A stretch of 30,423 nt of DNA from Asterionellopsis glacialis. Taxonomy: Eukaryota; Bacillariophyta; Plagiogrammaphyceae; Rhaphoneidales; Asterionellopsidaceae. Position 1 is the stretch's first letter, and every line of letters begins with the position of its first letter. The DNA is taken from the NCBI GenBank assembly GCA_014885115.2, contig WKLE02001069.1, forward strand, positions 1,336-31,758, written 5' to 3'. The translations under genes and the position numbers were made by a program. Below are positions 7,332 to 12,657 of this stretch, piece by piece. The notes under the pieces were generated by a model. The model saw nothing but the letters and a program-made list of their open reading frames with translations, ran no database searches and had not been told where the DNA came from.

Positions 7332-7573
7332 GGGGGCGTATTTTCGCAAGTGTGAACAACTGTAACGTTGTTGTTGTGATGCACAAGTGAAGTGTGAGGG
7401 GTTCTTGGTGGTCCGTGGTCGGTAGGCCAACAGGCGAGCAACGCGGATATGTTCGGCGCCCTATGTAGACTACTGTACACACGAGTGCGAGTTTTCTTTG
7501 GATTTTTCCGAAAATTTAGCTTTTAGCCTTCATATACCATAAATTTTTCGTAAATCAGCGCTAAGCCTAAGAT
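7332..7573. other. Spacer between LSM2 start and first permuted tRNA gene
   Basis: This should hold the LSM2 promoter and 5' UTR (minus strand) and the upstream region of the first tRNA unit (plus strand). The stretch near 7531-7543 is TATA-like. No coding sequence is seen. Confidence 0.5.
7531..7543 (+). promoter_or_regulatory. TATA-like element upstream of first permuted tRNA gene
   Basis: The stretch CATATACCATAAA lies about 30-40 nt before the 3' half of the first unit, where an upstream Pol III TATA-like element would sit. The other two units have a different AT-rich stretch (TAAATATTTTTC) about 66 nt upstream. The evidence is positional only. Confidence 0.25.
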
Positions 7574-7660
7574 AAGCCCTTGGTCGTGGGTTCGAACCCC
7601 ACCTGGAGCAGCCTTTGAGCTTGTGCTCCTGTAACTCAGTGGTCAGAGTGAGGGTCTTAT
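7574..7660 (+). tRNA. Circularly permuted tRNA-Ile(UAU), copy 1
   Basis: The gene order is 3' half, intervening sequence, 5' half. The 3' half (7574-7610) holds the end of the anticodon loop AA, anticodon-stem strand GCCCT, variable TGGTC, T stem GTGGG, loop TTCGAAC, T stem CCCAC, acceptor strand CTGGAGC and discriminator A. A 14-nt intervening sequence (7611-7624) follows. The 5' half (7625-7660) holds acceptor strand GCTCCTG, TA, D stem ACTC, D loop AGTGGTCA, D stem GAGT, G26, anticodon-stem strand AGGGT and CTTAT. Joining the halves gives the seven-base loop CTTATAA, anticodon UAU, with U33 and A37 as expected for Ile. All stems pair except U6-U67. The B box (GGTTCGAACCC) precedes the A box (TAACTCAGTGG), reversed from normal. 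A T5 run follows at 7671, and there is no T4 run inside the unit. Because ATAA and TTAT overlap, the exact junction can shift by two bases without changing the product. Confidence 0.82.
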
Positions 7661-7670
7661 GTGTGCTTGA

Positions 7671-7675
7671 TTTTT
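7671..7675 (+). terminator. T5 Pol III terminator after permuted tRNA copy 1
   Basis: TTTTT starts 11 nt after the 5' half ends. It closes a transcript that contains both halves in permuted order, and would terminate any transcript running from this 5' half to the next 3' half. Confidence 0.75.
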
Positions 7676-7968
7676 GCTCCACAAAATATCAGCACCGCAA
7701 AGCCTATGCAAAAAGAGACATCGTGTTTCGTGTTTAGAGCAAACAAGCTTGACCGAATGCGTCGACTATCAACGCGATAATTGTCTTAATTGTCTTTGTA
7801 ATACGTGTGTGGAGTGGTCTCTTGGCGTTTTTGCATCTCCCATTCTTTTCGAGATTATTTTGACTGGACGCAACAGATCACACATTGTGTTTTTCTACTT
7901 TTTAAATATTTTTCTGTTCACATTTGTGGGCACAAATTTTTCTCCACATGGGACATAAACACCAAGAT

Positions 7969-8064
7969 AAGCCCTTGGTCGTGGGTTCGAACCCCACCTG
8001 GAGCAGCTTCCTTCCTGGCATCGCGTATGCTCTTGTAACTCAGTGGTCAGAGTGAGGGTCTTAT
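7969..8064 (+). tRNA. Circularly permuted tRNA-Ile(UAU), copy 2
   Basis: The 3' half is at 7969-8005, identical to copy 1. A 23-nt intervening sequence (8006-8028) follows, then the 5' half at 8029-8064. The 5' half differs from copy 1 only at base 5 (GCTCTTG instead of GCTCCTG), turning the C5-G68 pair into a U-G wobble. The U6-U67 mismatch is shared. The flanks and the intervening sequence differ from copy 1, while the tRNA portions are nearly unchanged, which suggests selection or gene conversion on the tRNA body. T5 at 8076-8080 ends the unit. Confidence 0.82.
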
Positions 8065-8075
8065 GTGTGTGTTCC

Positions 8076-8080
8076 TTTTT
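8076..8080 (+). terminator. T5 Pol III terminator after permuted tRNA copy 2
   Basis: TTTTT lies 12 nt after the end of the 5' half. There is no T4 run between the start of the 3' half and this point. Confidence 0.75.
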
Positions 8081-8173
8081 ACTACTAAAATTACTAGCAC
8101 TACTTGTTAAATATTTTTCTGTTTACGTTTGTGGGCACAAATTTTTCTCCACATGGGACATAGACACCAAGAT

Positions 8174-8269
8174 AAGCCCTTGGTCGTGGGTTCGAACCCC
8201 ACCTGGAGCAGCTTCCTTCCTGGCAACGCGTATGCTCTTGTAACTCAGTGGTCAGAGTGAGGGTCTTAT
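8174..8269 (+). tRNA. Circularly permuted tRNA-Ile(UAU), copy 3
   Basis: The 3' half is at 8174-8210, the 23-nt intervening sequence at 8211-8233 (one base different from copy 2) and the 5' half at 8234-8269. The tRNA sequence is identical to copy 2. It is part of the 205-bp tandem duplication. The T5 at 8281-8285 follows. There is no further 3' half downstream, so this 5' half can only pair with the 3' half preceding it. Confidence 0.82.
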
Positions 8270-8280
8270 GTGTGTGTTCC

Positions 8281-8285
8281 TTTTT
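8281..8285 (+). terminator. T5 Pol III terminator after permuted tRNA copy 3
   Basis: TTTTT lies 12 nt after the 5' half, at the same offset as in copy 2. Confidence 0.75.
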
Positions 8286-8305: not shown

Positions 8306-10048
8306 GTACCGGTGCTTTTTTTTAAAAAACTCCTATATCATCTCTACAGACAGTCATGCAGGAAATTAAAGAGTCCTCATTGAAAAAAAACCTTGCTGTC
8401 CCGTAGTTTAGGGCATGCATCTTTTTATCAAGTAAGTGGAAAAGGAAGTTTGTGGTCATCCATTATTCCGTCATGAGGATTCTTTCGAAATATATGGCAC
8501 TAGTGGCAGTCATGGGCAAAGACTCAAAATGTCAAGAAATTTTTGAAAAGGATATGAAAGAAGTTATGGAAGTAAGCAAAGATTACGTACTGTATGTGCA
8601 TGCGCATGGCCACTGGTGTCCCACCAGGATCAGAAGCACCCCCGAAAGAATCACGTATATACCACAACATGATGTAAATACGGGACTCACCAGTTTAGAG
8701 TTTTGGATTTGGATCTTTCATCGTTTGCTTCATTTATCATGATGAGGAATATCATGCCTCTCGAATCAATAACTCAAACTAGGTACTGTAAAGTTTCTAA
8801 AAAAGTGTAGAATGGCTTTCGTACTCTCTAGTTTTCGTCCTCTCTCTAGAGTTTTTCAATATCGATTATTCCAAACTCTTTCCAAGAAGTGAGTGATTCA
8901 GATCTCCCCACAGAAAAAAGAGGTTCCGTACACACGAGTAGGTCCTACCGTACGTACGTACGTCCTTGTAATAGATGGTACTGCATTCTTCTTTCTCCTA
9001 CTCCCATCCAGAGAATTTGTCAATCACATCAGATAGTTATATATGACGTGAAAATGACGTGATTTTGTGGTATATTTTCAATGCAACTAAATATAATATT
9101 ATTGTTTATGTTCACATGACAAAATAAATATCGGGATTCGGACGCCAGAGTCGGAGAAGAACATTGTTCGGAATTCGTATCAGGTATGTAGGTTTTACTT
9201 GGCGGAGTACCGGATAGGCCATTTGTTTAGCGAGCGAGGCATGCATGAGAAAGAACAGACTTCTGCGGCGCCCCTAAATGCGTCAGTCAAAAAAAAGAAA
9301 GAAAGGAGAGGAGACGCGGGAGTGTCTTTTCTGCGTGTTCACAACAGACGCGTCTTCGGATTCCTGTTGGTTGATTTTCTGGACAAATCAGAACAGAGGA
9401 CAAAATCTCCTCGAGTAGGTAGGTAGTGATCGAACGGAATAATTTGTTTTATTCTATTTCTCGTACGTACCGTCGTGGCTTCAACCTACACGTCAATCCA
9501 CAGATTCAGCGGAAAAGACAAGAATCGCCCACAACACAAGGAAAAACACTAAGAAGAAAAAAAAGGAACGAAACAGACACCGACGAAAAGAACAACAAAA
9601 ACAAACCAATAAAAAAATCAACAATAACTATAGAAAGCAATAGATTTCGATTGATGCAACGGTGAATGACGAATCATCATTCGATTGTAAATCAAAGAAA
9701 AAGTCCACTGTGTTTCTCGTCACTTTTTCGTCCATCATCGGTCAGGTTGAAAGATTCCTGGAAGAAACCCGGAAAGTAAAAGCTTCACTGTCCCATCACC
9801 AACAACCGTACAAATTGAGCACTACGACCATCTGCTTCCGCCGCATACCTGGGGTACTCAGCACAATCACATTATATCAATCAAAAATAAGAACGGTACA
9901 TCACAGCCACAGCAATATTCAAGAAATGGTATTGTTACCAACCTGCACAGATAAATCACCACATTCACATCATCATCATCAGCTGCTACAACTGAGACAC
10001 GTAGATTCATCATCGGACAAAAATTACAGTACCACAAAACATCGACGT
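8306..10048. other. Intergenic region and probable 5' leader of the CCA-adding enzyme gene
   Basis: No convincing gene is seen. A 96-codon open frame at 8452-8742 has no recognisable motif. The part from about 9660 to 10048 stays open in frame with the downstream enzyme but is rich in His, Ser and Lys and reads like untranslated leader. A (CGTA)n tract lies at 8949-8963. Confidence 0.5.
8949..8963. repeat. (CGTA)n microsatellite
   Basis: Nearly four copies of CGTA. Confidence 0.8.
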
Positions 10049-12657
10049 ATGAACCAAACACGACGAAAGAACCATCATCTTGCAACAACGGTCATGCTAG
10101 CTTTTGTCGCAGTGCAAAGATTCACAGCAACAGCCTTGGTAACACCGTCATCACCACCAGCAGCAATAGGGCAACGAATTTCTTCGGTGATACGAAAAGT
10201 AGTCTCAAACAGCAATCACAATCACGATGACTTTATGAGATTGTTTGCTACCGATTCGCGTGAATTGCGGTTCTATGCGGGAGGCAGCAGCAGTACACGT
10301 AGTAGCAGTAGTCATCATGGCAATCACCACATGCACCATAATAATGGTGATGCAAGATCGGCAATACTTGAACCACAATTAGCTATAGCAGCCATTATGG
10401 AACCAATCTTGGCGGGTATCAAGGCAGAATCAGAAGATCCTCGTGCTACTACGAAAAATAATGGAGCTTCTCCTTCTTCCTTGTCATCCTCCTCTTCACT
10501 GGATGGTGGTCTATCATCTTCCTTTTCCACATCTACAACAAATAATGGACAAGTGGGGAGTGCTACTACATCTACAACTGGTCCACCAATATTTCCAAAT
10601 GTCAAAACAAATGCACTAGTGTTATCACCCGAAGAACAACAATTATTTAAACTTCTTCATCAAGTTACAAAAGAAACAGAATTATCATCCACTTTACGTG
10701 TAGCAGGTGGATGGGTACGAGACAAATTATTGGCAACCTCTGAATTTCAAAAGAATGTAGATAAAGTGAACAAACCTGAACGGTTGACCTCCAAATACCG
10801 TAGTGGCAGTAGTAGCAGCACCACTTCATCATCATCCTTGGATGATTCATCCTCTTCCTCATCATCGTCCACAAAGAAAAACCAACCTTCCATGGGACGA
10901 CAGGGTACAAAGGTATTAATGGATAAGGGCAATGCACCAGTTGATATTGACATTGCACTTGACGATATGTTGGGACGTGAATTTGCGGATCATTTGAATG
11001 AATGGTTGGCAGAACATGGCAAAGAAACACACTCGGTAGGTGTTGTGTTGAAGAATCCTGAAAAGTCCAAACATCTAGAAACAGCCACCATGAAGGTGGG
11101 GAGTTTTTGGATTGACTTTGTCAATTTACGCGCGGAAGAATACACACAAGACAGTCGTATCCCTGATCTCATGAGAATTGGAACACCAGATGAAGATGCC
11201 TTTCGTAGAGATTTGACAATTAATGCATTATTTTATAACATTAATAATGGCCAAGTGGAAGATTGGACTGGACGTGGCTTTGAGGACCTACGAAGAGGGA
11301 TTGTGGCAACGCCATTGGCACCTCTTACAACACTGTTGGATGATCCTCTACGTGTCCTTCGAAGTGTCCGATTTGCGGCGAGATTACGATTTGCCATGGA
11401 TGATACGCTTGTCGAAGCTGCCAAGGATGAGCGTGTCCGTGAGGCACTTGCACAAAAGGTATCACGAGAACGTGTCGGTGGTGAAGTTGACCTTATGCTT
11501 CGATCACTGGATCCTGTCGGTGCTATGCGTCTACTATGTAATCTCAATCTTGTTTCAACGGTATTTCCATTGGAATCTTGTTTGCCGGAANNNNNNNNNN
11601 NNNNNNNNNNNNNNNNNNNNNNNNNTTGACCTTATTGTCTACAACACATGATCACTTATGTGACTGCCAATTAAATCCTCCTATTTGGTGTGAGGCCAAA
11701 CGTGCCTCCAAGTCTCTCATCTTTGGTGTAGATGAAACCATGCTCATGGAAAATGATGAAGCACGACGATTGTTGTGGTACGCTGCCTTCCTCAAACCCT
11801 TGTTAGATTATTCGAAAATTCGACAAAGTCAGATAAGTCCACTCAAGTCATCCAAAGGTCAGGGCCGCAAGGCAAATCGGTCTGTCATACAAAAGTTATT
11901 GGTGGATGAACTTAAACGACCTACACGTGATGCAGATGCTGTAGAACGTATCATGAAAGCTGCAGATGACTTTACAAGACTCATCAATAGTGGATGTGAT
12001 CTATCCGCAATGGCGATTCTCATGAGTGAAGTCAAGGTGGAATACACGGGTGATGGTGATAACATCACGTTTTCCTGTGCACTAGATAACCAATCTGTGG
12101 ACAGTGAAACGGAAACCCACCCTGTGTGGATCCATGCTATGGAATTCCGACTATTGTGTTCCAAGGTATTACAACGTTCCAATACACTGTGGAGAGCGGC
12201 ACTATTCCTTTCCCTATCTGAACAATTGGTTTCCTTGGATGATGAAATTGATTATGCAATTGAAGGAGATGTGGTAAGTCGATTTGCTTTTTGTAACTCC
12301 AAGGAAGCTCAGCAAGAACGAGTGTGGACCATGGAAAATTGTGATTCTAACTTGTGTTCCTCGTTTGTATACACTTCTTTTCAGGTTGATGAGATTCATG
12401 AAGAATACAGAAAAGGAGTTCTTGAGAAATACAATGCATTTGCGGCTGCCTTGCAACAAATGGGTCTTATTGGAATTTGGGATCAAAAACCATTAATAGA
12501 TGGAGGGGAAATGAAAAAAATCCTTTCCAATATTCCAAAGGGACCTGTGTTTCGAGAAATTATGGATGAACAAGATAATTGGCTAACAACTCATCCTGGT
12601 GGAAGAAAGGAAGCACTTGCAGAGCATCTAAAGGAAGTATTCCCAGACTTTGTATAG
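10049..12657 (+). CDS. CCA-adding tRNA nucleotidyltransferase, interrupted by an assembly gap
   Basis: This enzyme adds or repairs the 3'-CCA of tRNAs (class II CCA-adding/poly(A) polymerase head family). Counting from 10049, the nucleotide-binding motif VAGGWVRDKLL is at residues 218-228, the metal-binding DID at 299-301, EDAFRRDLTINALFYNI near 381-397, the EDWTGRGFEDLRRG segment near 404, and LDDPLRVLRSVRFAARL at 430-446. A Ser-rich low-complexity insertion lies between the first two motifs (about 10800-10875). The C-terminal helical part continues after a 35-N gap at 11591-11625. The start at 10049 gives a hydrophobic leader (HHLATTVMLAFVAVQRFTATALVTP) that could be a signal or transit peptide; in-frame ATGs at 9926 and 9662 are alternatives. 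A probable 111-nt intron (12274-12384) lies near the end. The frame changes across the N gap, so the stated gap size is probably wrong or an intron lies there. Confidence 0.85.
11591..11625. other. Assembly gap of 35 N
   Basis: The gap interrupts the CCA-adding enzyme gene. Codons start at positions 2 mod 3 before the gap and 1 mod 3 after it. Continuity would need a missing length divisible by three, for example 33 or 36, or an intron. Confidence 1.
12274..12384 (+). other. Probable phase-0 intron, in-frame and free of stops
   Basis: The segment begins GTAAGT and ends with a pyrimidine-rich tract and CAG (CTTCTTTTCAG). It is 111 nt long, divisible by three, and open in the gene's frame. Its 37 codons read as Cys/Phe/Ser-rich sequence unlike the surrounding helical protein. 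Removing it joins DYAIEGDV to VDEIHEEYRKGVLEKY. Retention would still give a full-length protein. Confidence 0.75.

What the first reader, a model, noticed from the sequence alone, without database searches (positions are those of the whole stretch)
7574..8269. Three tandem circularly permuted tRNA-Ile(UAU) genes
Three units each carry a tRNA 3' half (T arm with perfect B box, acceptor strand CTGGAGC, discriminator A) 14 or 23 nt upstream of a tRNA 5' half (acceptor strand GCTCYTG, D arm, anticodon-stem strand). Joining the outer ends gives the loop CTTATAA (anticodon UAU, Ile), a 5-bp anticodon stem, a perfect T stem and a perfect D stem. The acceptor 3' strand and loop agree with what is known of eukaryotic tRNA-Ile(UAU). 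Permuted tRNA genes are known from red algae such as Cyanidioschyzon, prasinophyte green algae, a nucleomorph and an archaeon. I do not know of a description in a diatom or other stramenopile, if that is what this is. Standard tRNA finders would miss these genes.
Basis: partly seen in the sequence, partly recalled or inferred. Interest (0 to 1): 0.95.

Follow-up and report, generated by a model that had tools for sequence, protein, structure and literature searches.

The report
Rearranged (permuted) tRNA genes in a diatom
A diatom genome carries tRNA genes whose two halves lie in the wrong order, so that the RNA would have to be cut and rejoined to work; they look like the only genes for two of its tRNAs, and I found no earlier report of such genes in diatoms in the papers I could search.

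Summary
The finding holds. Three tRNA 3' halves each lie 14, 23 or 23 nt upstream of a 5' half; joined, each pair is a 73-nt tRNA-Ile(UAU). A rotated covariance model built from 20 other tRNAs of this genome scores them 59.7, 56.0 and 56.0 bits. The genome is a diatom close to Asterionellopsis glacialis. The main rival, two normal-order genes with 308- and 109-nt introns, strands two of six halves and puts T4+ runs inside both introns; no permuted unit has one, and T5 follows each 5' half. The same genome holds three more permuted genes, all tRNA-Arg(ACG), on three contigs, where no other half was found, so no long-intron reading is open. Two of these carry the upstream box of normal tRNA genes before the 3' half. 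No normal-order Ile(UAU) or Arg(ACG) gene was found at BLAST sensitivity. Expression and the circular intermediate are untested. The Ile join looks like 36/37, not the usual 37/38. A known kind of gene in a new lineage.

The parts
7552..7573 (+). unit 1 leader (22 nt used in the pairing tests), ending AAGAT before the 3' half
7574..7610 (+). unit 1 tRNA-Ile(UAU) 3' half (positions 37-73; B box, T arm, acceptor 3' strand, discriminator A)
   Evidence: R2 59.7 bits
7611..7624 (+). unit 1 intervening sequence, 14 nt
7625..7660 (+). unit 1 5' half (positions 1-36; acceptor 5' strand, D arm, anticodon-stem strand, CTTAT)
7671..7675 (+). T5 run, pol III terminator-like, 10 nt after the unit 1 5' half
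7947..7968 (+). unit 2 leader
7969..8005 (+). unit 2 3' half
   Evidence: R2 56.0 bits
8006..8028 (+). unit 2 intervening sequence, 23 nt
8029..8064 (+). unit 2 5' half
8076..8080 (+). T5 run 11 nt after the unit 2 5' half
8152..8173 (+). unit 3 leader
8174..8210 (+). unit 3 3' half
   Evidence: R2 56.0 bits
8211..8233 (+). unit 3 intervening sequence, 23 nt
8234..8269 (+). unit 3 5' half
8281..8285 (+). T5 run 11 nt after the unit 3 5' half

Best explanation
The three units are circularly permuted nuclear tRNA-Ile(UAU) genes of a diatom. Each is transcribed by RNA polymerase III as leader - 3' half - short intervening sequence - 5' half - trailer, ending at the T5 run. The precursor folds so that the acceptor stem forms a hairpin over the intervening sequence and the leader and trailer pair next to the anticodon stem. 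The tRNA-splicing endonuclease cuts both ends in the anticodon loop, a ligase joins them into a circle, and RNase P and RNase Z then cut out the intervening sequence to make the tRNA ends, to which CCA is added. Shown here: gene order, cloverleaf, T runs, no normal-order copy found at BLAST sensitivity, two endonuclease-domain matches, and a second permuted isoacceptor (Arg ACG, three loci). Inferred from Cyanidioschyzon (PMC3978253): transcription, circle, end processing and function.
For: Halves and join, ARAGORN Ile(tat) 3 of 3. Rotated model R2, built with no window or Ile row: 59.7/56.0/56.0 bits. Three permuted Arg(ACG) genes at C211, C835 and C1021: 58.0, 58.6 and 59.6 bits, ARAGORN Arg(acg) when joined. 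In these the halves are identical while 100-nt flanks match at only 22-36 of 100 ungapped positions and spacers differ. The 73-nt Ile query matched 9 places: the six halves and three tRNA-Ile(AAT) genes at 84%; the Arg query matched 6, its own halves. No T4+ run inside any Ile unit and T5 at +10/+11/+11; T4-T5 at +7 in the Arg genes. TATATTTTGAT (consensus picked by eye from the normal genes) is exact in 10 of 59 normal tRNA upstreams and 0 of 1180 shuffles, and 30 and 32 nt upstream of the 3' half in 2 of 3 Arg genes. Own leader-trailer pairing ranks 2 of 120 reassignments. Nucleotide -3 of the leader is G opposite C32 in all six genes (for Ile, if joined at 36/37) and in the tRNA-Tyr intron. 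PF01974 endonuclease matches at C14 and C351. AUA occurs 20 times and CGT 49 times in 2661 codons of four window ORFs.
Against: No RNA data and no relative's genome was available. The Ile units and C211 have no match to the upstream box above chance (8 of 11 positions). T6:T67 mismatch in all three Ile units. A canonical 37/38 join would give G37. The Arg tRNA has three G.T acceptor pairs, a 3-bp D stem and T as discriminator. Leader-trailer pairing is weak for unit 1 and C211 (shuffle fractions 0.157 and 0.1925), and the C211 leader pairs better with Ile trailers than with its own. Unconstrained folding gives a clean cloverleaf for C1021 but not for C211 or C835. The lack of normal-order copies rests on a draft assembly and searches that score only the best candidates.
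Confidence: 0.93

Rival explanations
1. Two normal-order tRNA-Ile(UAU) genes with long introns (5' half of unit 1 + 3' half of unit 2, intron 308 nt; 5' half of unit 2 + 3' half of unit 3, intron 109 nt), flanked by stray halves.
Against: It leaves the first 3' half and the last 5' half unused. The introns contain 8 and 3 runs of four or more T, the first 10-11 nt after each 5' half. In the same genome Arg(ACG) was found only as isolated 3'half-5'half units, where no such reading is open. The spacer between acceptor ends is short (14, 23, 23) while the 'introns' differ threefold.
Confidence: 0.04
2. Pseudogenes or a broken tandem array without function.
For: T6:T67 acceptor mismatch; tandem duplication of units 2 and 3; no promoter box above chance.
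Against: 3' halves identical and 5' halves different at one position between unit 1 and units 2/3 while leader, spacer and trailer diverge; no other Ile(UAU) gene found, though AUA is used. A U6:U67 mismatch is, as I recall, also present in yeast tRNA-Ile(UAU); a review passage says Pus1 modifies position 67 there (PMC4090602).
Confidence: 0.03
3. Y RNA (YrlA-like), a non-coding RNA with a permuted tRNA-like module, not a tRNA.
For: Rfam YrlA matches all three units over its whole length: 29.6, 24.5, 23.3 bits.
Against: Far below the gathering score of 69; 84% identity over 60 nt to this genome's tRNA-Ile(AAT); full anticodon stem-loop with Ile anticodon; the Arg(ACG) parallel.
Confidence: 0.02

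Closest known systems
Type II permuted tRNA genes of Cyanidioschyzon merolae (red alga), PMC3978253
   Same: 3' half upstream of 5' half, short intervening sequence (7-74 nt there, 14/23 here), T-stretch after the 5' half, join in the anticodon loop, no CCA encoded
   Different: Diatom; Ile(UAU) is not in that review's table of 34 genes; multicopy (tandem trio and a dispersed Arg trio; C. merolae has one pair, Gly CCC); apparent 36/37 join in Ile
Permuted tRNA genes of prasinophyte green algae and the Bigelowiella natans nucleomorph (table in PMC3978253), and of Auxenochlorella (PMC12633428, passages)
   Same: 3' half before 5' half, short spacers; mostly type II in the review's table
   Different: Other lineage; Ile(UAU) and Arg(ACG) are not among the isoacceptors of the review's table (those of Auxenochlorella were not seen); O. 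lucimarinus shows an extra 5' half, here whole units repeat
YrlA Y RNAs (Rfam RF02553)
   Same: T arm, acceptor-like hairpin, then D arm (alignment)
   Different: Score below half of the gathering threshold; these are full tRNAs with an anticodon arm

Membership tests
circularly permuted tRNA gene | 3' half encoded upstream of 5' half on the same strand | tested here: met
circularly permuted tRNA gene | joined halves give a full cloverleaf with a clear anticodon | tested here: met
   ARAGORN Ile(tat) 3 of 3, one acceptor mismatch
circularly permuted tRNA gene | short intervening sequence without terminator, T-stretch after the 5' half | tested here: met
circularly permuted tRNA gene | TATA-like element upstream of the 3' half | tested here: inconclusive
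   exact box in 2 of 3 Arg genes, 0 of 3 Ile units
circularly permuted tRNA gene | BHB-like structure at the junction | tested here: inconclusive
   leader-trailer pairing rank 2 of 120 but weak in single genes; C32/G-3 in six genes (that position 32 pairs with intron -3 is recalled)
circularly permuted tRNA gene, type II | junction at position 37/38 | tested here: inconclusive
   fits Arg(ACG); in Ile the sequence gives A37 only with a 36/37 join or a shifted equivalent
circularly permuted tRNA gene | no intact normal-order gene for the anticodon (not strictly required) | tested here: met
   at BLAST sensitivity in a draft assembly
circularly permuted tRNA gene | circular RNA intermediate and aminoacylated mature tRNA | not testable with these tools
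   no RNA data
YrlA Y RNA | reaches the Rfam gathering score | tested here: not met
   29.6, 24.5, 23.3 against 69
YrlA Y RNA | Ro-binding stem | not tested
   -
tRNA gene with long intron | 5' half, intron without pol III terminator-like T run, 3' half | tested here: not met
   8 and 3 T4+ runs in the introns

The most novel reading that the evidence does not exclude
In this diatom lineage permuted tRNA genes have fully replaced the normal-order genes of two isoacceptors (Ile UAU, Arg ACG) and have multiplied in permuted form, in tandem and by dispersal, with the Ile genes joined one nucleotide off the canonical 37/38 site; permuted tRNA genes would then be a stable, inherited gene form in stramenopiles.
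Probability: 0.4. Interest if true: 0.85.

Novelty: new member of a known kind. Interest (0 to 1): 0.76.

Why it matters
Permuted tRNA genes were listed from red and green algae, one nucleomorph and one archaeon (34 genes in 2014, PMC3978253). A diatom, from another supergroup, supports repeated origin and suggests that stramenopile genomes should be rescanned with rotated models. Multicopy permuted genes that appear to be the sole source of two isoacceptors make their cost, origin and processing testable. They also show how intron-tolerant tRNA searches can report normal-order genes that are probably not there.

Tried and rejected
Long-intron reading: rejected. Y RNA reading: rejected, but its Rfam model proved a usable probe for permuted order (46 of 470 candidates scored).

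Search for further permuted tRNAs: every site of four B-box patterns was either fetched and looked at or lay in a tRNA gene already called: GGTTCGAATCC 17 of 17, GGTTCGATYCC 52 of 52 (27 fetched, 25 in known genes), GGTTCGARYCC 47 of 47, which include the former 17, GGTTCAARTCC 61 of 61 (55 fetched, 6 in known genes), with fetches. Only the six genes reported came out as permuted. Weak R2 matches there that I set aside by eye or as normal genes: L116 18.7 bits, L181 12.6 (a normal Leu) and L175 11.6, L081, L082 and L085 24.6-31.2 (normal Pro) and L102 24.8 (His-like). GGTTCRANNCC gave 419 sites against 426 control sites; only its first places were listed and the rest was not followed. B boxes without the leading GG, and permutations at other positions, were not searched.

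The RF00005 list scored 63 of 1479 candidates and missed normal genes found later, so absence of other anticodons from it means little. The 13-tRNA query found only normal-order genes and missed the permuted Arg genes although it held a human-like Arg(ACG), so it is insensitive. R2 alone is no proof: a tandem pair of normal tRNA-Arg(TCG) genes scores 54.6 (L003) and a phage array of normal genes 37.3 (L194). One of three unconstrained precursor folds of the Arg genes shows the cloverleaf.

Papers: PMC3978253 abstract, sections 4, 5 and 8, part 1 of section 10, and passages; passages only of PMC12633428, PMC4090602, PMC8450103, PMC9602550, PMC11528492, PMC13353863 and PMC4929541; others as search listings. 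Library searches: permuted tRNA (45 papers, 40 listed); with diatom (6 papers, 5 listed, passages of all 5 seen, none about a diatom's permuted tRNA; in PMC12633428 only the word permuted was looked up); with stramenopile (1 paper, only reference-list and unrelated matches); PlantRNA/Phaeodactylum terms (6, 4 listed); circularly permuted + tRNA genes + diatoms (3, one opened); a broad two-of-six search was uninformative. None showed a permuted tRNA gene in a diatom; most subscription papers are not in that library.

Full report
What is there. The window lies in a 40.3-Mb, 1503-contig assembly. Its MCM3 gene has as best named hit among the 120 listed, at 93% identity, a protein of taxid 33640, Asterionellopsis glacialis, a diatom. 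At 7574-8269 there are three 3' halves and three 5' halves of a tRNA in the order 3'-5', 3'-5', 3'-5', with 14, 23 and 23 nt between the halves. Joined, 3 of 3 are called tRNA-Ile(tat) by ARAGORN. The D and T stems are perfect, the anticodon stem has one T.G pair, and the acceptor stem has a T6:T67 mismatch in all units. I recall the same mismatch in yeast tRNA-Ile(UAU), and a review passage names position 67 as a Pus1 target there, so I do not read it as decay.

Not chance. A covariance model of rotated tRNAs, built from 20 normal tRNAs of this genome with no Ile or window row, scores the units 59.7, 56.0 and 56.0 bits. An earlier model that included them gives 67.2, 63.9 and 63.9. Tandem normal genes can mimic this: an Arg(TCG) pair at L003 scores 54.6, but both of its copies are intact in normal order.

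The rival to weigh. With introns allowed, ARAGORN reads the array as two normal-order Ile(UAU) genes with introns of 308 and 109 nt, and cmscan gives 46.1 bits for 8029-8210. But the array begins with a 3' half and ends with a 5' half, so this reading strands two of six halves. No unit contains a run of four T from 20 nt upstream to its end; T5 follows 10, 11 and 11 nt after the 5' halves; the supposed introns hold 8 and 3 such runs. Pol III would be expected to stop in them (general knowledge).

A second permuted tRNA. Rfam's YrlA, a Y RNA with a permuted tRNA-like module (recalled), weakly matches the units; searched over the genome it gave 6 matches, among them C211:60471-60572. This is a permuted tRNA-Arg(ACG) gene: 58.0 bits with R2, Arg(acg) by ARAGORN when joined. 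All 17 GGTTCGAATCC sites of the genome (5 in the control) were then scanned and gave two more, on C835 and C1021, with 58.6 and 59.6 bits. The three have identical halves, spacers of 6, 6 and 7 nt, and unrelated flanks (22-36 of 100 ungapped positions equal). A joined Arg query finds these six half-matches and nothing else, so here the permuted reading has no long-intron alternative. The joined Ile query finds the six halves of the window and three tRNA-Ile(AAT) genes at 84% over 60 nt. Both searches score only the best candidates in a draft assembly. Oddities of the Arg tRNA: three G.T acceptor pairs, a 3-bp D stem and a T discriminator.

How it is likely transcribed and processed. Of 59 normal tRNA upstreams, 10 carry an exact TATATTTTGAT box (0 of 1180 shuffled; the consensus was picked by eye from such genes); C835 and C1021 have it 30 and 32 nt before the 3' half. 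This suggests that transcription starts upstream of the 3' half. C211 and the three Ile units match at only 8 of 11 positions, which shuffled sequence often reaches. Leader and trailer of one gene pair better than expected: rank 2 of 120 reassignments among five genes, with unit 2 or unit 3 as the second Ile gene. Single-gene shuffle fractions are 0.157, 0.0255, 0.0035, 0.1925, 0.0635 and 0.016, and the C211 leader pairs better with Ile trailers than with its own, so the signal is modest. The third nucleotide before the 3' half is G, opposite C32, in all six genes (in Ile, if the 3' half starts at A37) and in the intron of this genome's tRNA-Tyr; that this is the anticodon-intron pair is recalled. 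Two loci match the splicing-endonuclease domain PF01974. Circle formation, ligation and end cutting are inferred from C. merolae (PMC3978253, sections 4, 5, 8 and part 1 of 10 read).

The junction. Arg(ACG) fits 37/38. In Ile the 5' half continues with G after CTTAT, so a 37/38 join would give CTTATGA with G37, and CTTATAA with A37 needs 36/37 (or a shifted equivalent). A37 is expected for a tRNA with U36 (general knowledge), and the C32/G-3 pair also fits 36/37. I favour 36/37; sequencing would settle it.

Age and origin. Units 2 and 3 are 94% alike over 206 positions at offset 205. Unit 1 differs in leader, spacer and trailer but by one base in the halves, as expected if only the halves are constrained. 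AUA occurs 20 times and CGT/CGC 54 times in 2661 codons of four window ORFs, so both tRNAs should be needed.

What is known. The 2014 review lists 34 permuted genes in six algae and one archaeon, none for Ile; Auxenochlorella was added in 2025 (passages). Library searches showed no permuted tRNA gene in a diatom or stramenopile. I therefore rate it a new member of a known kind in a new supergroup, with multicopy and junction features that could make it a variant.

Noticed in passing
L078, L097, L100 (G000 contigs C211, C835, C1021): Three dispersed permuted tRNA-Arg(ACG) genes with identical halves, 6-7 nt spacers and diverged flanks.
   Followed up: yes
L072 4838-4931 and 5006-5107 (IMGVR_UViG_3300037308_000148): Two permuted-looking tRNA units in a phage contig with tail sheath stabilizer and head closure proteins and a homing endonuclease next to them; acceptor and anticodon stems pair within each unit; R2 32.9 and 45.4 bits. 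No normal tRNA in this locus by ARAGORN. Could be permuted phage tRNAs or Y-RNA-like elements; a library search for permuted tRNA + phage (6 papers, 5 listed) was not followed up.
   Followed up: partly
L073 10345-10447 and 10506-10580 (IMGVR_UViG_3300031555_005060): Two permuted tRNA-like elements (R2 39.7 and 60.1 bits) sharing outer flanks that can pair by eye, in a contig that also encodes a polynucleotide kinase-like protein; no Rfam family at gathering score in this locus.
   Followed up: partly
window 9662-11578 +: A gene about 1.4 kb downstream of the tRNA array resembles tRNA CCA-adding enzymes (PF01743; PDB tRNA nucleotidyltransferases).
   Followed up: partly
L052 (G000:C550:18141-18228): ARAGORN's 'Ile(gat)' with a 17-nt intron is by eye a tRNA-Tyr(GTA) with an intron at 37/38 ending CTGAT, so canonical tRNA introns exist in this genome.
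   Followed up: partly
L028, L036 and others: upstreams of normal tRNAs: Many normal tRNA genes of this diatom have an upstream TATATTTTGAT-like box (9 or more of 11 positions in 26 of 59, against 58 of 1180 shuffles) and a T4-T5 run downstream.
   Followed up: partly
L102, L137, L171: tRNA-His-like repeated sequences; L102 and L137 share a downstream tail, perhaps a tRNA-derived repeat.
   Followed up: no
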